Source of the DNA: Streptomyces sp. CG 926
Lineage (GTDB): Bacteria; Actinomycetota; Actinomycetes; Streptomycetales; Streptomycetaceae
Assembly (NCBI RefSeq): GCF_003148825.1
Contig: NZ_QGGZ01000001.1
Span: 620,001 to 684,000, forward strand
Direction: 5' to 3'
Length of the DNA stretch: 64,000 bases
Part shown: positions 54,490-62,494 of the stretch, one piece after another
Layout of the letters: each line of letters begins with the position of its first letter
Position numbering within the stretch: position 1 is the stretch's first letter
The notes under the pieces: generated by a model
The model's database searches: none
Told to the model about the DNA's origin: nothing
What the model saw: only the letters and a program-made list of their open reading frames with translations
Made by a program: the position numbers and the translations under genes

Positions 54490-56310
54490 TCAGTTCACCC
54501 GCTTCCGGCGCAGGACCTCGACGAGACGGTCGTCGTCCAGTCGGGTCAGCGCGGCGACCCCGGACACGTCGGTGATGCCCGACAGGGCGGACTTGCGGTG
54601 GTGCATAGCCGCGATGTGCTCCTCGACCGTGGTACCGGTGGTCAGGGTCGTGACGGTGACCGTGCGGGTCTGACCGATCCGGTGGACCCGGTCGGAGGCC
54701 TGGGCCTCCACGGCCGGGTTCCACCACCGGTCGAAGTGGATGACGTCGGCCGCGCGCGTGAGCGTGAGCCCGGTGCCCCCCGCCTTCAGGCTGAGGACGA
54801 GCACCTTCGGACCGTCGTCGGACCGGAACCGGCGGACGATGTCGGCCCGCTGCTCCTGGTTCAGACCACCGTGGAAGAACGGCGCATCCACCCCGAACTG
54901 TTCGGCGAAGTGCCGGACCAGCAGTTCACCGGTCTGCCGGTATTGGGTGAAGACCAGGGTCGGGGCGTCGTTCTCCAGATTGGCGGCCACGATGTCGGTG
55001 CACAGGTCGAGCTTGCCCGACCTGCCCGCCAGCTCGCCGAGGTCGTCCGTGATCAGGCCCGGATGGTTGCAGACCTGCTTGAGCGACGTCAGGACCGCGA
55101 GCACCTTGCTCTGTCGCCGGGCGCCGGTGCCGAAGCCGTCGTCGACGACCTGGTCCAGCAGCCGGTCGTACAGCTGCTCCTGCTCCTCGCTGAGGTCGCA
55201 GATGAGATCGGCGTGGATCTTGGCCGGGAGCGACCCCGCGACCTGGGACTTCTTCCGCATCAGCACGACCGGCTCGATGGCCCCGCGCAACCGGGCCGAG
55301 GCGGCCCGGGAGCCGTCCGCGATCGGCCGCACGAAGCGACGGCGGAACTGCGCCCGGTTCGCGAACAGGTGCGGCGCGACCAGATCGAGCAGGGCCCACA
55401 GCTCGTCGAGGTGGTTCTCCACGGGCGTGCCGGTCAGGGCGATCCGGGCGTCGGCCGCGAGGGTGCGCGCGGCCTTCGACACCTGCGTACGGGGGTTCTT
55501 CAGGACCTGCGCCTCGTCGAAGACCGCGGTGCTCCACCGGATCCCCGCCAGGGTCGGGCCGTGCGAGCGGAGCGTGGGGTACCCGGTGAGCACCACCGTG
55601 CCGCCGGCCACCTCGGGCGGCGGCCCGCCGCGCCAGATCACGGTCCGCAGTCCGGGGGCGAACCGCGCGATCTCGTGCGCCCAGTTCCCCACCAACGAGG
55701 TCGGGCAGACGACCAGTTGTGGAGCCCGCGCGGCGCGTCCGGCGAGCCAACCGATGGTCTGCAGGGTCTTGCCGAGTCCCATCTCGTCGGCCAGTACCGC
55801 GCCGCCGTGCGCCTCGATGCTCTCGCGCAGCCAGCTCACCCCACGCGCCTGGTAGGGCCGCAGGTCGGCGGTGAGCACGGTGCGCATCTCGGCCCCCACC
55901 GAGGTGGTGCGGCGGAAGACGCCCCCCGCGTGCTCCGCCGTCGTCACGGCGACGCCTGTGGCGTCGGGGACCGCGTGCGCGGCGATCGGCAGAGCCGGCC
56001 CGGCCGACCCGATCGAATCGCCGCCGCCCTCGATCCACGACCTCCAGGCCTTCACCGACGGGCCGGGCGAGTCGAGGGGAACGGCCGCGAGCCGGTCCGG
56101 CTCGACCAGTACGCAGTCGACGTCGGTCACCTCGAGGCCGCCGAGGTCCGGCGTCGGCACGGCCAGGGAGACGGTCTCGTCGTCGCCGACCGGCGGGGCC
56201 GCCCCCACGGCGCCGTCGGCCCAGGTCCACAGGGCGAACATGTGTCGGTCGGGCAGGTAGGTGGCCTGAATCGAGCGCTGCTCGGAATTCGACAAGGTGG
56301 GTGCGGTCAT
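54490..56310 (-). CDS. SNF2-family DEAD/DEAH-box ATPase (helicase-like)
   Basis: A 606-residue SWI2/SNF2 DNA translocase. From the ATG at 56310 (AAGG upstream) a N-terminal region of about 150 residues precedes the RecA pair. Motif I is DEMGLGKT, motif II DEAQ (in VFDEAQVLKNP), motif III LTGTPVEN. In the second half come LVFTQY, GGTGLTLTRA and DRVHRIGQTR. All motifs are intact. A start further upstream at 56655 would add about 115 poorly conserved residues and is less likely. It is translationally linked to the SWIM gene; the pair may remodel protein-DNA complexes or act in repair. Confidence 0.92.
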   Translation of the reverse strand: MTAPTLSNSEQRSIQATYLPDRHMFALWTWADGAVGAAPPVGDDETVSLAVPTPDLGGLEVTDVDCVLVEPDRLAAVPLDSPGPSVKAWRSWIEGGGDSIGSAGPALPIAAHAVPDATGVAVTTAEHAGGVFRRTTSVGAEMRTVLTADLRPYQARGVSWLRESIEAHGGAVLADEMGLGKTLQTIGWLAGRAARAPQLVVCPTSLVGNWAHEIARFAPGLRTVIWRGGPPPEVAGGTVVLTGYPTLRSHGPTLAGIRWSTAVFDEAQVLKNPRTQVSKAARTLAADARIALTGTPVENHLDELWALLDLVAPHLFANRAQFRRRFVRPIADGSRAASARLRGAIEPVVLMRKKSQVAGSLPAKIHADLICDLSEEQEQLYDRLLDQVVDDGFGTGARRQSKVLAVLTSLKQVCNHPGLITDDLGELAGRSGKLDLCTDIVAANLENDAPTLVFTQYRQTGELLVRHFAEQFGVDAPFFHGGLNQEQRADIVRRFRSDDGPKVLVLSLKAGGTGLTLTRAADVIHFDRWWNPAVEAQASDRVHRIGQTRTVTVTTLTTGTTVEEHIAAMHHRKSALSGITDVSGVAALTRLDDDRLVEVLRRKRVN

Positions 56311-56846
56311 GAACGCCTTCGGGTGCGGTCCGGAAAAGCCGACCAGCGGACCGTAAGCAATGATCGGACGGGTGTCAATTCCCGGACGACGGATAGTGGT
56401 CGGCGACTTTCCGGCGTACCCGAGGGCATGCCGTGGACCTTCTGTCAATTGCTGAACCTGAGGCTTGACCTGGCGAGAATTCCGTGCCCCACCTGGCGTT
56501 CCGGAGGAAGTCGACCGCTTCTGCCTGCCGATCCGGCGGACAGAAATCCCTTTCCCGCATATCTTCCGAACGAGAGGATCGGAATTCTCCCGAAGAAGCC
56601 GACCGGGAAGCTTCGGGATTTCCACGGAGAGGAACGGAAAAGTCCGCGGAGTCAATCCTCGGGCGCCCGGTTCTCCATCGGCGCGGTCACGCGATATCAG
56701 GCACCGGACCCGGTCCGGGTTCGGCCGTTCCCGCTCACGGTGCGGCGCAATGGGGGCGGAAAGAGGTGAAACCCGATCGACGGTGCGGCGTTAGAGGGGT
56801 GGGCCGCCGTTTCGCCCGCGGCGCAGACGCGAGTACGAGGAGCACG
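56311..56846. promoter_or_regulatory. 536-bp divergent intergenic region with less GC-rich DNA
   Basis: This gap separates the SNF2 gene (minus) from the channel gene (plus). No credible gene was found. It is visibly less GC-rich than the flanks. An imperfect stem-loop occurs at 56581-56623, with exact arms CCCGAAG (56589-56595) and CTTCGGG (56611-56617), extended by mismatched GGAATT/ATTTCC. It could be an RNA hairpin or operator; promoters for both genes should lie here. Confidence 0.45.
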
Positions 56847-57734
56847 ATGAGAGACCCGAGGCCGGCCGGACGTGGTCGGATGAAGCTGGCAGCCCGATGC
56901 CGGGTGGCCACGGAGGCCCCCGCCTTCGGGATGGTCGTCTTCTGCGCGATCCTCTTCAACGCCGCGTTGATGGGGGTGGAGACCTACAGCGGCCTCGCCG
57001 CGGAGTACCGGCTCGTGCTCCAGGGCGCGGAGAACTGCTGCCTGGCCCTGTTCACCCTGGAGATGCTGCTGCGCGTGGGCGCCTGTGCGGACCGGCCGAA
57101 AGCATTCTTCCGCGACCCGTGGAACCTCTTCGACCTCGCGGTCGTCGCCTCCGCCTTCGTCCCGCTCGTCCGCGAGAACACCACCCTGCTGCGGCTGCTG
57201 CGCCTCGCCCGGGTCCTGCGCACCGCCCGCTTCCTGCCGCACCTGCGCATCCTGCTGATCGCGGTGGGCCGCAGTCTGCCGGGCACCGCCAGCTTCCTGT
57301 TCGTCGGCGCGCTGGTGCTGTACGTGTACGCCATGATCGGCTGGGTCTGCTTCGCGCGGTCGGACCCCGGGCACTACGGCTCGGTGGGTCGCGCGATGCT
57401 CACGCTCTTCCTGCTGACCACGCTCGACGGCCTGACGGACGCCGTCCGCGCGGGTCTGCAGATCTCCCGGCTGAGCATCATCTACTACGCCTCCTACGCG
57501 CTGCTCGCCTCCTTCGTGCTGGTGAACGTACTGATCGGTGTGGTCCTCAACTCCCTGGACGAGGCACGCGAGATGGAGGACGAGGCGAAGCGCGCCCCGG
57601 AGCCGGGCGCGGAGCCCGACGTCCGGGCGCGGATCGCCACGGCCCGCCGGGCCCTGGACGAGATCGAGGCGAGCCTGCCACCCACGGCCGACCGGCCGGA
57701 GCGGCAGCTGGAGGCCTCGCACACCGGGGCCTGA
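56847..57734 (+). CDS. voltage-gated cation channel (BacNaV-like) with Asp-rich filter
   Basis: A 295-residue six-helix channel subunit; four would form the channel. S1 is at about 26-46, S4 about 113-135 with a repeated Arg pattern (LLRLLRLARVLRTARFLPHLR), S5 about 148-168 and S6 about 205-230. The pore helix and filter read AMLTLFLLTTLDGLTD, so the filter is T192-L-D194-G-L-T-D198. NavAb-type sodium channels have TLESWSM. Here Asp replaces both the Glu and the terminal Met, and Trp is Leu. A charged helical C-terminal tail follows S6, with a predicted coiled coil. ATG follows CGAGGAG. Confidence 0.88.
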   Translation: MRDPRPAGRGRMKLAARCRVATEAPAFGMVVFCAILFNAALMGVETYSGLAAEYRLVLQGAENCCLALFTLEMLLRVGACADRPKAFFRDPWNLFDLAVVASAFVPLVRENTTLLRLLRLARVLRTARFLPHLRILLIAVGRSLPGTASFLFVGALVLYVYAMIGWVCFARSDPGHYGSVGRAMLTLFLLTTLDGLTDAVRAGLQISRLSIIYYASYALLASFVLVNVLIGVVLNSLDEAREMEDEAKRAPEPGAEPDVRARIATARRALDEIEASLPPTADRPERQLEASHTGA

Positions 57735-57761: not shown

Positions 57762-60700
57762 TCAGGTGTCGCCGCGGACGATCAGCCGGAGGTCCCGGCC
57801 CCCGTACGGGCGCTCCTCGGCGCTCCAGTGTTGCGGCCAGCCGGGGAGCGGGGGCTCCGGGTCGCTCTTGAAGCGCACGCCCTGGAAGTGGGCCCCGCCT
57901 CCGAACAGGGCGTTCCGGAAGTCCGCCGGTTGTTCGAACGTGGTGTCGGAACTCGTCAGTTCGCGTTCCCAGGTCGCGGACGCGAAGGAGACGGGGCTGA
58001 CGAACCTGGTCCCGCTCAGCCTGACCCGACCGCGGAAGACGGTGCCGGAGAAGTCGGCCGCGCCGGTCACGTGCATGGCGCTCAGGTCCGCCGCGTCCTC
58101 CAGCACGGCCCGCGCGAAGGACACCTCGCCGAGGAACACGGCGTTCGTGCAGGCCGCCGGACCGCGGAAGACCGTACGACGGAACCCGCTCGCCCCGTGG
58201 AAGCGGCTCCGGTCGAAGGCGCCGCCGTCCTGGAACACCGCGCCGTCGAAGGAGACCGGGCCGCCGAAGGTCGCACCCACGAACGCGGCCCGGCTGTCGA
58301 ACACGGCCCGCGTGAAGGAGGCACGGTCGGTGAACTCGACGTCCACCCGGTTCCAGCCGTCCACGAAACGCGCCCGGTCGAAGGCGGCGGGCCCCAGCCG
58401 GACGGGTCCCGACGTACGGGGCTCCAGGGCCGTGAGCAGTCGCGGGAGCAGACCGTGCGCGAAGGTCGTGCCCCGGAGGTCCAGCGGGGCTCCCGGCCGC
58501 AGGGCCGCCAGGTAGGCCCGCTCCTCCTGCGCCTCCAGATGCGCCAGGCACCGCCCGTACCCGGGCAGTCGGACACCGCCGCAGGCCGCGGACCCGGCCA
58601 CCTCGGCTCCGCAGGTCGGCCAGTCGACGGCCGCGTCCAGGAGCGGGTCGGCGTCCATCAGTACCTGCCCGAGCAGTTCGGCGGCGGATTCCGGGCCGCC
58701 GCACACCCAGCCCCCGTCGTCGCGGCCCACCCGCTCCAGGTCGACCCGCACGGGAAACCCGAACAGCCCGTCGAGATCCCGGTGCAGGCGGTGGGACACG
58801 GCGAGGACGATCGTCCCGGGGACAGCCGTCCGCCCCAGCCGGTCGAGGACCGCGGGATCCCGGACCAGTCGGCCGGTCTCCCGCGTCCCGATGCCCACGG
58901 CCACGGCCAGGGAAGGGGGCATCCCCTCCATCCACCGCCCTCCGTACCCCAGCGCGACCGCGCGCAGTACGGACAGCAGACGGCCCGCCTTGGCATGGGC
59001 GCCGGGCGCGTCCACGACGAGGAGGAGCGGCTCCTCCCCCTGGCCGCCGACCGATCGTCCGCCGACGCCGGCGCGCGAGACGAGCTCGACCAGCATGTCC
59101 CTGGTCTCCGCGACCGGCGAACTCCCGATCGGGATCAGGCCGTCGTCACCGGGCCGTACCGCCAGGCACACCCCGGTGTCCGTGTCTGCCTCGTCCCGCC
59201 CGGAGCCCTCCAACGCCGCCCGGAATCCCGGCTGTTCCAGCAGGGCGTCGGCCAGCAGGAAGACCATGCGGTTGCGCCAGACCGTGTGGACGACGCCGAC
59301 CAGCGCGCCGTCCACGGAGACCGGGCCGCCCCGGAAGTGCGTCCAGCCCTCCGGCTCCCCGGAGAGGCGGACGAGTTCGCCGTTGCGGCCGCCGTCGTGC
59401 GGGGCCGCCTCACCCGTCAGCGCGAGCGGGTCCCCCTGGTCGGTGCGGCCGTCGATCCGTAGCCGGTCCACGCGGTGATGGTCCGCCGCCGTCAGCCAGG
59501 GCAGCGGCTCCGCGCGGACGGCCGGGTCCACCAGGTCCTCGTCGGCCTGGAGCAGCAGCATCCGGGGCGCCGCGTCGTCCGACCACACCACGCGGCAGGG
59601 GATCTCCCGGTCGGCGGGCCGTACCCAGGCCACCGCGCCCGGCGCGGGCTGCGCGTCGCCGACCGTCAGGACCAGCCTCGGCGTCAGCAGGGTGCCGACC
59701 TCCTGCGGCTCGGGCATGGCGTCGTGGCGGACCCGGACGACCCGGTCGGCCAGGCCCGGCTCCCCCGGGGGCCTGGCCGCGAACGGCAGCGCGCCCTCGG
59801 CCACCCGGCGCACGCCCTCCCGGCCCGTGGTGACCCGGGTCGCGGAGAAGTCCGGGCCGGTGCTCCGGTTGCGGGACATGAACTCCCAGACCCGGCGCCG
59901 GACCAGCTCCCGTACGGCGGCCACGTCGCCGCGTAGTTGCGAGCCGAGCAGCGCCTCCCGTACGCCGGGCAGGAACTCGAACTCCACCTCCGCGGCGTCC
60001 CGTTCGTCCTCCCAGGGCTCGAAGAGCCCGCCGAGGGCGACCTCGGCGAGGTGGCCGTGCTCCGAGTCGCGCAGCAGGGAGCGTCGGACGAGGGTCATCA
60101 CGGGCAGGGTCAGCGGTACGGCGGCCAGGTGGGCGGCGAGCTGCTGGGCCGTCGGCGAGGCGCTCGCCCGGAAGCGTTCCAGCACGTCCAGGGCGCTGCG
60201 GCCGCCGGCGGGGGCGGGATCCTCCGGGGCGCTCGCGGCGGCGGGTTCCCCATCGAGGCGCAGACAGGCCAGGCGCCGCCACCGGCCGTCCCCGGAGACC
60301 ACCCGCACCAGGCGGGCCAGGCTGCCGGAGGCGACCCCGACCACCGGCACCAGGGGCACCACGGGGACGACGGGCGAGCCTGCGGTGCGGCGGCGTCCGG
60401 CGCGGGCGCGGCGGGCGGCCGGGACGCGCTGCCAGGAGCGGGTGGCGGCGGCCGGTCGGTCGGCTCGGACGGCGAAGGGGACGGGCCGGACGGCGCCGCG
60501 CGTCCAGAGCCGTTCGGGCAGGACGTTCAGTACGGCCACGGCGTTGTGCGCGCACCAGTGCCGGAGCATGCTCCGCATCGGGGCCTCCCGCCAGCCGCCC
60601 GCCACGGTGTCGGAGAGGACGAGGATCAGCCGGCGGCCCGCCGGGTCGGCCAGTTCCAGGGGGTTGCGGGGCGGGCCGCCGTGGCCGCGGGTGACCATCG

Positions 60701-61352
60701 GGGTGGCGCCGGGGCCGGTTCCGGTCAGTTGCCAGGTGCGCACGTCCCGGAAGACCCCGCTGCGGGTCAGGACGCGGCGGAGCTCGTCCACGTGGTCCGC
60801 CCAGAGCAGCATGGAGTGGTGGGTGTCGACGACCAGGGCCAGGTCCAGCCAGCGGCTCTCGGCGGGGCGCAGGACCGGGGTCGTCACCATCCGCTCGATG
60901 CTGCGTTCCACGGTGAGCTGCTCGTCCAGTTCCTCTCCGGGGCCGCCGATGGAGCGGCGGCCCACGGGCCGCAGGGAGCGCATCAGGGCGAGCGGGTCGT
61001 CGAGGGAGGCGGCGCGGGGCAGTCGCAGCGGGGAGCCCCGGCGTTCCATGGCGTCGTCGGCGGGTTTCCCGGCGGGGTCGCGCCGGGCGGCCGGGAAGAG
61101 CTGGACGGCCGGCTCGCCGCCGGCCGGGGCGACCAGCGCGGGGGCCGGGCCGGGCTCGGGTACAGGGGGGTCGGCCGGTGGTGGTCGCCCGCCCGGTGGG
61201 TCGGCGCCGGGCTCCTCGGGCGGGTGGGCCCCGGCGGGGTCCACCCGGGCCGCCAGCCACAGGATGTCGGCGATCTCCTCCGCCCCGATGCCGGTGCTCG
61301 GGACGCTGCCGTCGGCGCCGTCGGCGAGGGCCGCGAGCAGCTTCTCGATCAC
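57762..61352 (-). CDS. SAV_2336-type conflict protein: degenerate vWA, protease-dead trypsin-like domain, pentapeptide repeats
   Basis: A 1196-residue multidomain protein. The N-terminus (MIEKLLAALAD... with a GTG start) and the region to about 165 match the SAV_2336 N-terminal type. A vWA-like Rossmann region follows (about 167-290): the MIDAS position is DTHHS (176-180), lacking the middle Ser, with a later LVLSDT. A trypsin-like domain (about 538-705) keeps the fold (VGTLLTPRLVLTVGD, then FRGGPVSVDGALVGVVH) but the catalytic His and Ser positions are not conserved. A Cys/His cluster (C914, C924, C935, H938) leads into pentapeptide repeats (about 955-1160, many AxFxx-type units such as ASFTRAVFDSRAAFVG). 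It overlaps the MoxR gene by GTGA, and is the likely effector or sensor. Confidence 0.82.
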   Translation of the reverse strand: MIEKLLAALADGADGSVPSTGIGAEEIADILWLAARVDPAGAHPPEEPGADPPGGRPPPADPPVPEPGPAPALVAPAGGEPAVQLFPAARRDPAGKPADDAMERRGSPLRLPRAASLDDPLALMRSLRPVGRRSIGGPGEELDEQLTVERSIERMVTTPVLRPAESRWLDLALVVDTHHSMLLWADHVDELRRVLTRSGVFRDVRTWQLTGTGPGATPMVTRGHGGPPRNPLELADPAGRRLILVLSDTVAGGWREAPMRSMLRHWCAHNAVAVLNVLPERLWTRGAVRPVPFAVRADRPAAATRSWQRVPAARRARAGRRRTAGSPVVPVVPLVPVVGVASGSLARLVRVVSGDGRWRRLACLRLDGEPAAASAPEDPAPAGGRSALDVLERFRASASPTAQQLAAHLAAVPLTLPVMTLVRRSLLRDSEHGHLAEVALGGLFEPWEDERDAAEVEFEFLPGVREALLGSQLRGDVAAVRELVRRRVWEFMSRNRSTGPDFSATRVTTGREGVRRVAEGALPFAARPPGEPGLADRVVRVRHDAMPEPQEVGTLLTPRLVLTVGDAQPAPGAVAWVRPADREIPCRVVWSDDAAPRMLLLQADEDLVDPAVRAEPLPWLTAADHHRVDRLRIDGRTDQGDPLALTGEAAPHDGGRNGELVRLSGEPEGWTHFRGGPVSVDGALVGVVHTVWRNRMVFLLADALLEQPGFRAALEGSGRDEADTDTGVCLAVRPGDDGLIPIGSSPVAETRDMLVELVSRAGVGGRSVGGQGEEPLLLVVDAPGAHAKAGRLLSVLRAVALGYGGRWMEGMPPSLAVAVGIGTRETGRLVRDPAVLDRLGRTAVPGTIVLAVSHRLHRDLDGLFGFPVRVDLERVGRDDGGWVCGGPESAAELLGQVLMDADPLLDAAVDWPTCGAEVAGSAACGGVRLPGYGRCLAHLEAQEERAYLAALRPGAPLDLRGTTFAHGLLPRLLTALEPRTSGPVRLGPAAFDRARFVDGWNRVDVEFTDRASFTRAVFDSRAAFVGATFGGPVSFDGAVFQDGGAFDRSRFHGASGFRRTVFRGPAACTNAVFLGEVSFARAVLEDAADLSAMHVTGAADFSGTVFRGRVRLSGTRFVSPVSFASATWERELTSSDTTFEQPADFRNALFGGGAHFQGVRFKSDPEPPLPGWPQHWSAEERPYGGRDLRLIVRGDT

Positions 61353-62494
61353 GCCGTGGGCCCGGTCAGGTGCTGCATGACGGTGGCGAGGAAGCGTTCG
61401 CGGTCGGCGGGCGCGGACCAGGCACCTGCGAGGCGGAGTTGGATGGCGTTGAGGAGCTGGTCGGTGGCCAGGTCGCCGTCCTCGCCGCGTTCGAGGAAAG
61501 CCTGGACGAGGTCCTGGTACTCCTCGCCGGAGTCGATGTCGACACCGAGCCGGCGGCGCACGATGCGGGCGAGCTTGTCCGGCCCGGGCGGCTCGAGGTG
61601 GAGGCGGACGCAGCGGCGCAGGAAGGCGGGCGGGAAGTCCCGTTCGCCGTTGCTGGTGAGGACGACGATGGGGAAGTAGCGGCACTGGACGCGGCCCTGG
61701 GTGATCCGTACGACCGCGTCGGGGTCGTCGTCGGTGCCGATGGCGACGGTGGGGTCCTCCTGGGCGAGGCGGGCGAGTTCGGGGATGAGGAAGCCGCCGT
61801 CCTCGAAGACGGTGAGGAGGTCGCCGGGGAGGTCGATGTCGCTCTTGTCGATCTCGTCGACGAGCAGCACGCGGGGGCGGTCCTGCGGGAGCAGGGCGGT
61901 GCCGAGGGGGCCGAGGCGCAGATAGCGGGAGATCGACGGCGCGGAGGGGACGCCCTGCGGGTACGTGGCCGCGGGATCGGCCGAGGACGCGGCGCCGGGC
62001 GCGGACACGGGCGCGGACACGGGCTCGGTCCCGACCGCGGTCCCGGCCGCCGTGGCCGCGGGATGTGCGCCCGGCGTGCGCAGCTGCTCCAGCCCGGCCT
62101 CCTGGAGGCGGCCGATCGCGTCGTACAGGTAGAGCCCGTCCCGCAGCACGGTCCGGCTGGTGATCGGCCAGTGCAGTACGGGCCCCAGGTTCAGGTCGGA
62201 GGCGATGCTGTAGGCGAGCGTGGACTTGCCGACGCCCGGTTTCCCGGTGACGAGCAGCGGCCTGCGCAGGTGCAGGGCCGTGTTGACCACGTCCTTCTCC
62301 GGTTCGTCGGGTACGTAGCCCTCGCCGCGCCGCCAGGTCCGCTCCCAGGCCGCGCCCGCGCACCCGGGCGGCGCGTATCCGGGGTCGGGGGCGCCCGTGA
62401 AGTCCCTCCAGGGTGGGGGGAATCCGGCCTCCAGGCGGGCACGCCGGTCCGTGCCCTCGCCGGTCCCGTGGTACAGCCACCAGTCCTTCACCAC
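61349..62494 (-). CDS. MoxR-type AAA+ ATPase of the VMAP/SAV_2336 system
   Basis: A 381-residue AAA+ ATPase. Walker A is TGKPGVGKST, Walker B LLVDEIDKSD, sensor 1 LTSNGERDFPPAFLRR (with the Arg finger). An unusual Ala/Thr/Pro/Ser-rich insertion of about 45 residues lies between the two Walker motifs (AGTEPVSAPVSAPGAASSAD-type sequence). The GTG at 62494 has GGAGG at a good distance; an ATG at 62509 would add five residues. It lies 46 nt after the VMAP-like gene and overlaps the effector gene. It should power the system by NTP-dependent remodelling. Confidence 0.85.
   Translation of the reverse strand: MVKDWWLYHGTGEGTDRRARLEAGFPPPWRDFTGAPDPGYAPPGCAGAAWERTWRRGEGYVPDEPEKDVVNTALHLRRPLLVTGKPGVGKSTLAYSIASDLNLGPVLHWPITSRTVLRDGLYLYDAIGRLQEAGLEQLRTPGAHPAATAAGTAVGTEPVSAPVSAPGAASSADPAATYPQGVPSAPSISRYLRLGPLGTALLPQDRPRVLLVDEIDKSDIDLPGDLLTVFEDGGFLIPELARLAQEDPTVAIGTDDDPDAVVRITQGRVQCRYFPIVVLTSNGERDFPPAFLRRCVRLHLEPPGPDKLARIVRRRLGVDIDSGEEYQDLVQAFLERGEDGDLATDQLLNAIQLRLAGAWSAPADRERFLATVMQHLTGPTA

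What the first reader, a model, noticed from the sequence alone, without database searches (positions are those of the whole stretch)
57420..57443. Voltage-gated channel with TLDGLTD filter
The filter has Asp at the positions equivalent to NavAb E177 and M181, and lacks the Trp at 179. The engineered calcium-selective CavAb also carries Asp at these two positions. A natural Ca2+-permeable prokaryotic channel is plausible.
Basis: partly seen in the sequence, partly recalled or inferred. Interest (0 to 1): 0.6.

Follow-up and report, generated by a model that had tools for sequence, protein, structure and literature searches.

The report
Streptomyces voltage-gated channel, tryptophan-free filter
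A Streptomyces bacterium carries a voltage-gated ion channel, probably letting calcium in, whose ion-selecting gate lacks the tryptophan brace described as near-universal in sodium and calcium channels, and many related bacterial channels lack it too.

Summary
Window 56847-57734 (+) encodes a 295-aa single-domain voltage-gated cation channel (Ion_trans, 138.7 bits). Its filter TLDGLTD (aa 192-198) lies at 57420-57440. In the Streptomyces clade, Gly4 is present in 79 of 79 rows (68 distinct) and Trp5 in 0 of 79.

The CavAb comparison is partly apt: CavAb also has Asp at 178, which is Gly here. The better match is CavMr (TLEGWVD), a native prokaryotic calcium channel in which Gly4 is decisive and Asp7 dispensable.

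The Trp loss is lineage-wide. On a tree built without the filter columns it needs three changes: a 59-row actinobacterial clade, a 6-row clade and one Microbispora strain. Thr1, the Trp's hydrogen-bond partner, changed only on Trp-less branches: 10 of 10 inferred changes, with equal branch length on both sides. Trp-bearing channels with CavMr-like TLEGW filters are the neighbours of the large clade.

Most likely function: depolarisation-gated, calcium-permeable homotetramer. Selectivity is inferred, not shown. Contrary evidence: NavAb S178G (Gly4) is not calcium-permeable, and NsvBa (Asp3) is non-selective. New variant of a known kind.

The parts
56837..56842 (+). GAGGAG, likely ribosome-binding site, 4 nt before the ATG
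   Evidence: read directly
56847..57734 (+). single-domain voltage-gated cation channel gene, 295 aa plus stop
   Evidence: translation; PF00520 138.7 bits; dN well below dS over residues 20-243 against eight relatives; model mean pLDDT 81.1
56919..57155 (+). voltage sensor S1-S3 (aa 25-103) with N38, E45, F69, E72 and D96
   Evidence: all five present in 79 of 79 Streptomyces-clade rows; helices; their likeness to NavAb charge-transfer residues is recalled
57192..57230 (+). S4 gating arginines R116, R119, R122, R125 and R128
   Evidence: first four R in 175 of 175 rows; R128 in 71 of 79 Streptomyces-clade rows
57384..57422 (+). pore helix P1 (aa 180-192)
   Evidence: predicted helix H180-192
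57420..57440 (+). selectivity filter TLDGLTD (aa 192-198)
   Evidence: census
57432..57464 (+). P2 helix (aa 196-206), a Nav/Cav pore feature absent in K+ channels (PMC4436565 passage)
   Evidence: predicted helix H196-206
57471..57593 (+). S6 inner helix and neck (aa 209-249) with the conserved Asn (N227)
   Evidence: predicted helix H209-249; N227 invariant in 33 sequences
57615..57674 (+). C-terminal helix (aa 257-276), heptad-like, probably the tetramer coiled coil of BacNavs
   Evidence: predicted helix H257-276; R262, I263, R267, A269, L270, D271, E274, L277 at 90% or more in 42 sequences

Best explanation
The gene encodes a 6-TM subunit that forms a homotetramer opened by depolarisation through a five-arginine S4. 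Four Asp at position 3 form the high-field ring, four Gly at position 4 widen the mouth above it, and four Asp at position 7 add charge at the vestibule: eight negative charges per tetramer, the number given for CavMr. The pore most likely passes calcium in preference to sodium, by the CavMr logic (open Gly4 mouth over an acidic ring) rather than the CavAb logic (three Asp rings), perhaps with some K+ leak. The Trp5-Thr1 inter-subunit hydrogen bonds that brace this filter in Nav and Cav channels are absent; Leu/Ile/Phe packing probably replaces them, giving a more pliant filter. Shown here: gene, predicted fold, S4, conservation, Trp loss, coupled Thr1 relaxation. Inferred: tetramer, voltage gating, calcium permeability, packing in place of Trp.
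For: PF00520. The monomer model's first PDB matches are CavAb 5klb, NavMs and NavAb, with NaChBac at rank 17 (TM 0.53-0.59 by query length); NavAb 6mvy at Z 15.8, rmsd 4.0, 221 residues. In the Streptomyces clade Gly4 79 of 79, Asp/Glu3 79 of 79, Asp7 75 of 79. CavMr: Gly4 is the key determinant; G4S and G4D cut calcium selectivity (PMC7041947). The nearest characterised filter to this one, TLEGWTD, made as NavPp-D4G, gained divalent selectivity. PMC10120453 proposes that Gly at this site gives calcium selectivity in one-domain channels (section 13). Trp5-Thr1: 10 of 10 inferred Thr1 changes on Trp-less branches (10 is the parsimony minimum); Thr1 kept in 59 of 59 Trp-bearing rows.
Against: NavAb S178G (TLEGWSM) stays calcium-impermeable, PCa/PNa below 0.01, and becomes lithium-selective: Gly4 alone is not enough in another scaffold (PMC12919392). 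NsvBa with Asp3 (TLDSWGS) is non-selective (PMC7041947). CavMr also needs Val6: V6T (filter TLEGWTD) lowered its calcium selectivity and let K+ and Cs+ through, and NavPp-D4G showed greater K+ and Cs+ permeability; this protein has Thr6. CavMr's long disulfide-bearing P2-S6 loop (PMC10120453) is absent here. PMC10120453 names CavMr as its Asp-ring example although CavMr has Glu, so its rule is not shown for Asp. I found no electrophysiology for a natural Trp-less member.
Confidence: 0.55

Rival explanations
1. A voltage-gated but poorly selective cation channel (Na+, K+ and Ca2+ all pass), because the Trp brace is gone and the ring is Asp rather than Glu.
For: NsvBa TLDSWGS is non-selective (PMC7041947); CavMr-V6T and NavPp-D4G, both TLEGWTD, pass K+ and Cs+; NavAb M181A mutants become nonselective with about 10-fold calcium selectivity, attributed to loss of filter stabilisation (PMC12919392); Trp mutation raises filter flexibility in CaV1.3 simulations (PMC10542529 abstract and passages).
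Against: Gly4 and the acidic position 3 are each kept in 79 of 79 rows, stricter than a leak would seem to need; in CaV1.3 the Trp mutants were reported for inactivation, and in the abstract and passages that I saw no loss of selectivity is stated.
Confidence: 0.26
2. A sodium channel, perhaps blocked by external calcium like NavPp.
For: The well-known bacterial relatives conduct Na+; NavPp (TLEDWTD) shares Asp7 and Thr6 and is Na+-permeable and Ca-blocked (PMC7041947); best single-domain PDB sequence match is NaChBac at 134.9 bits.
Against: Position 4 is Gly, not Ser or Asp; changing NavPp Asp4 to Gly gave divalent selectivity (PMC7041947). The host is a soil genus, not marine or alkaliphilic (general knowledge).
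Confidence: 0.12
3. A filter evolving towards a K+/TRP-like shape: TLEGLGD and TLDGLGD resemble K+ channel T-V-G-Y-G-D with one acidic residue inserted.
For: 53 of 79 Streptomyces-clade rows have Gly at both 4 and 6, and 75 of 79 have Asp7; a weaker PKD_channel match, 33.9 bits; Trp is also absent from K+ filters (recalled).
Against: The acidic residue 3 is kept in 79 of 79; a P2 helix, lacking in K+ channels, is predicted; position 6 is Thr in the window and varies; sequence and fold are Nav/Cav-like.
Confidence: 0.03
4. A non-conducting or degenerate pore kept for its voltage sensor.
For: Loss of a residue called exceptionally conserved and structural (PMC4436565 figure legend).
Against: P-loop under purifying selection; L185, L187, L189, L190 and Gly195 invariant in 42 sequences.
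Confidence: 0.04

Closest known systems
CavMr (Meiothermus ruber), filter TLEGWVD, AnclNav group
   Same: single-domain 6-TM channel; Gly4; acidic 3; Asp7; eight filter charges per tetramer
   Different: Trp5 replaced by Leu, Asp instead of Glu at 3, Thr instead of Val at 6, no long Cys-bearing P2-S6 loop; CavMr's own sequence was not on hand, so no direct alignment or tree placement
CavAb (engineered NavAb, TLDDWSD)
   Same: Asp at 3 and 7; top Foldseek match of the model (5klb)
   Different: no Asp at 4 (Gly), no Trp at 5
NaChBac and NavAb (BacNav)
   Same: predicted fold, S4 arginines, S6 Asn, C-terminal helix; NaChBac is the best single-domain PDB sequence match
   Different: TLESWAS / TLESWSM filters; P2 region one residue longer
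Actinobacterial TLEGW channels (this work; 18 loci, e.g. L118, L120, L123)
   Same: 33-40% identical to the window protein, CavMr-like Gly4; neighbours of the Trp-less clade in the tree
   Different: keep Trp5 and Thr1; genomes unnamed; untested
Eukaryotic Cav domain I/III filters
   Same: Gly at position 4 (PMC7041947)
   Different: four-domain protein, Trp kept

Membership tests
Voltage-gated ion channel superfamily (PF00520) | six-helix Ion_trans domain with S4 arginines | tested here: met
   138.7 bits; R116/119/122/125 in 175 of 175 rows; helices
Canonical BacNav | TLESW filter | tested here: not met
   TLDGLTD
Canonical BacNav | single-domain Nav/Cav fold with P1, filter, P2, S6 and C-terminal helix | tested here: met
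   (predicted monomer only)
CavMr-type prokaryotic Cav | Gly at filter position 4 over an acidic position 3 | tested here: met
   79 of 79 rows in the Streptomyces clade
CavMr-type prokaryotic Cav | Trp at filter position 5 | tested here: not met
   0 of 79 rows
CavMr-type prokaryotic Cav | extended P2-S6 loop with disulfide (PMC10120453) | tested here: not met
   AVRAGLQISRLSIIYY, short, no Cys
CavMr-type prokaryotic Cav | calcium selectivity | not testable with these tools
   needs electrophysiology
CavMr-type prokaryotic Cav | placement with CavMr in a tree (AnclNav group) | not tested
   CavMr sequence not on hand; actinobacterial TLEGW channels used instead
CavAb-type three-Asp filter | Asp at 3, 4 and 7 | tested here: not met
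   position 4 is Gly in 79 of 79
K+ channel | T-x-G-[Y/F]-G filter and no P2 helix | tested here: not met
   TLDGLTD; P2 helix predicted

The most novel reading that the evidence does not exclude
A widespread lineage of actinobacterial channels, of which this is a Streptomyces member, conducts calcium selectively through a Nav/Cav-type filter that has abandoned the Trp-Thr inter-subunit brace. Losing the Trp freed Thr1 to drift, showing in evolution that the pair is one functional unit, and the filter holds its shape by hydrophobic packing instead. It would be a natural test of what the near-universal Trp does.
Probability: 0.35. Interest if true: 0.75.

Novelty: new variant of a known kind. 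Interest (0 to 1): 0.55.

Why it matters
The Trp two residues after the ring acid is called exceptionally or ultra-highly conserved across Nav, Cav, NALCN and BacNav, an anchor hydrogen-bonding to Thr of the next subunit and a tuner of inactivation (PMC4436565 legend, PMC10542529 passages). Natural channels lacking it let its role be studied without mutating it. Gly4 with no Trp also tests whether the CavMr rule (Gly4 gives calcium selectivity) holds outside CavMr and NavPp, where NavAb S178G says it does not. If calcium-permeable, it would be a candidate voltage-gated calcium entry route in part of Streptomyces (34 of 199 genomes of the genus matched, the window's own included), a genus in which calcium and the calcium-binding protein CabC act in spore germination (PMC5693915, passages).

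Tried and rejected
Gene neighbourhood as a clue: rejected. The SNF2 helicase upstream has no match in the flanks held (up to 8 kb, shorter in some) of 41 homologue loci; the convergent pentapeptide protein is beside 9 of 41, only the nearest relatives. An all-against-all of flanking ORFs (GC3-filtered, no proper gene calling; the 14 largest clusters viewed) showed nothing at a fixed place across subclades; one cluster of a probable sensor protein occurs in 7 loci, at scattered distances and on both strands.

Exact convergence on 'DGLGD': rejected. Gapped tblastn output suggested TGDGLGD in a second clade; the raw sequences read TGDGGLGD or IGDGGLGD, one residue longer. It is a separate Trp loss, not the same filter.

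Phylogeny-aware test by independent pairs: no power (3 pairs). Fisher 12 of 66 against 0 of 46, p 0.0013, ignores relatedness. The parsimony test was thought of after seeing the data and rests on a quick tree; 10 is the minimum number of position-1 changes on it (9 if only Thr against not-Thr is counted).

Profile searches of whole genomes returned no answer; I used the single protein instead, so more distant relatives were missed. The genome surveys covered Actinomycetota only. No tetramer model was made. I did not see Trp-less natural channels of this family described in the listings (open-access library only; listings capped) or in the passages read.

Full report
What is there. Window 56847-57734 (+) is one gene, 295 aa, with a likely ribosome-binding site. 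Pfam names it Ion_trans, 138.7 bits, with a weaker PKD_channel match of 33.9 bits; NCBIfam gives no match at E 0.001. Two Streptomyces plasmid records hold copies 65-66% identical annotated 'ion transporter'; a third has no annotation. The filter TLDGLTD is aa 192-198, window 57420-57440. The window lies in an 8.5 Mb genome whose nearest named relatives are Streptomyces. The protein has one match there; the two other Ion_trans matches, one below the curated cut-off, are TVGYGD and TTGYGD K+-type channels.

Fold. AlphaFold2 on 33 aligned sequences gives mean pLDDT 81.1 and pTM 0.54 for the monomer. Foldseek's first PDB matches are CavAb 5klb, NavMs and NavAb, with NaChBac at rank 17. The re-alignment gives Z 15.8 (rmsd 4.0, 221 residues) to NavAb 6mvy; the tool warns that helical proteins can score up to about 13-14 without a clear relative, so the sequence evidence (NaChBac 134.9 bits, the best single-domain match; four-domain T-type calcium channels score higher by summing domains) carries equal weight. 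Four S4 arginines, E72 and D96 are present in 175 of 175 aligned rows. A helix at 257-276 with heptad-like conservation looks like the BacNav coiled coil.

Selection. Over residues 20-243 dN is 0.006-0.129 and dS 0.19-0.60 against eight relatives; the C-terminal 52 residues evolve faster (dN 0.09-0.36).

Distribution. 34 of 199 genomes of the genus match (window's own included; two are fragments only, one has in-frame stops). In the phylum 24 of 296 match at E 0.001 or better, the weaker ones being partly other channel types; at E 1e-20, 41 of 299 in the class of G297 and 65 of 345 in the own class. 53 loci came from named genomes.

Filter census. Of 194 loci (196 less the two K+-type ones), 8 gave no tblastn hit and 14 were dropped (4 weak, 4 short, 6 with in-frame stops); 172 remain, with the window, NavAb and NaChBac 175 rows. 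Among the dropped rows whose filter could be read, L161 (TLEDFPQ) and L168 (TLEDFPV) lack Trp and L157, L167, L173, L181 and L195 keep it; all keep Thr1. Streptomyces clade, 79 rows, 68 distinct over residues 21-244 (three are the window's own copy): position 1 Thr 75; position 3 Asp 54, Glu 25; position 4 Gly 79; position 5 Leu 61, Ile 14, Phe 3, Val 1, Trp 0; position 6 Gly 53, Thr 20, Gln 5, Ala 1; position 7 Asp 75. A further 30 rows, 34-46% identical, have TLEN[L/F]P or near forms (SLENLP, SLETLP, SLEGLP, TLEGLP), also without Trp. Six rows (L175-L180) have [T/I]GDGGLGD. Trp-bearing rows are 59 (57 loci, NavAb, NaChBac), 18 of them loci with CavMr-like TLEGW.

Evolution. A tree with the filter included (90 rows) puts its Trp-less rows, except L175 and L176, in a 58-row clade (support 100/99) next to TLENW and TLEGW channels. 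A second tree with the filter columns removed (112 rows thinned from 175, short search, many weak forks) needs three Trp changes, all forced by starred branches: 59 rows (support 96), 6 rows, and L081 (Microbispora rosea, Trp to Gly). Holding the 59 and the 6 together is rejected (AU p 0.005; groups named after seeing the tree). The outgroups NavAb and NaChBac have Trp, so loss is the likely direction. The tool flags long branches. Thr1 is kept in 59 of 59 Trp-bearing rows; 10 of 10 inferred changes fall on Trp-less branches although total branch length is equal (25.35 and 25.34), P about 0.001. At other filter positions the share on Trp-less branches is 1 of 6 (position 2), 3 of 4 (3), 4 of 17 (4), 4 of 16 (6) and 16 of 35 (7). 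This fits the published Trp-Thr hydrogen bond between subunits (PMC10761118 and PMC10542529 passages): once Trp is gone Thr is free to change.

Mechanism. CavMr (PMC7041947; abstract, sections 6, 9, 10 part 1 and passages) gets its selectivity from Gly4 with Val6, not Asp7. Its mutant V6T and NavPp-D4G both carry TLEGWTD, the characterised filter nearest to this one: the first loses some calcium selectivity, the second gains divalent selectivity, and both pass K+ and Cs+ more. PMC10120453 (section 13 and passages) generalises Gly at this site to calcium selectivity. Against: PMC12919392 (passages, section 21) shows that NavAb S178G is not calcium-permeable, so scaffold matters. This protein's scaffold is nearer the actinobacterial TLEGW channels than NavAb, which is why I favour calcium, at 0.55. 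PMC10542529 (abstract, passages) shows that Trp substitutions in CaV1.3 change inactivation and filter flexibility, so unusual inactivation is expected.

Other papers: PMC5824947, PMC3924187 and PMC6090064 were read as passages only; PMC3924187 reports six VIC-family members in S. coelicolor, one most like KcsA and others with 2 or 4 TMS.

Verdict. A real, conserved, Nav/Cav-type bacterial channel with a filter variant that I did not find described; function inferred.

Noticed in passing
   Followed up: partly
L081 (Microbispora rosea): TVENGPQ where other Microbispora strains have TVENWPQ or TVEGWPQ: a lone Trp-to-Gly change, real or a sequencing error.
   Followed up: no
window 57762-62480 (-): 1572-aa ORF whose only Pfam match is pentapeptide repeats near its C-terminus (PF13576), convergent with the channel and conserved beside it in 9 of 41 loci.
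   Followed up: partly
window 54490-56655 (-): SNF2-type helicase (PF00176, PF00271) divergent from the channel; no match in the flanks held for 41 homologue loci, so the left-hand neighbour varies.
   Followed up: partly
G128 and G196: In two congeners the channel or a further copy looks broken: in-frame stops in G128, a copy split over two frames in G196.
   Followed up: no
L118, L120, L122-L131, L158, L160, L162-L164, L166: Unnamed actinobacterial genomes carry 18 channels with CavMr-like TLEGW filters; candidates for further native prokaryotic calcium channels.
   Followed up: partly
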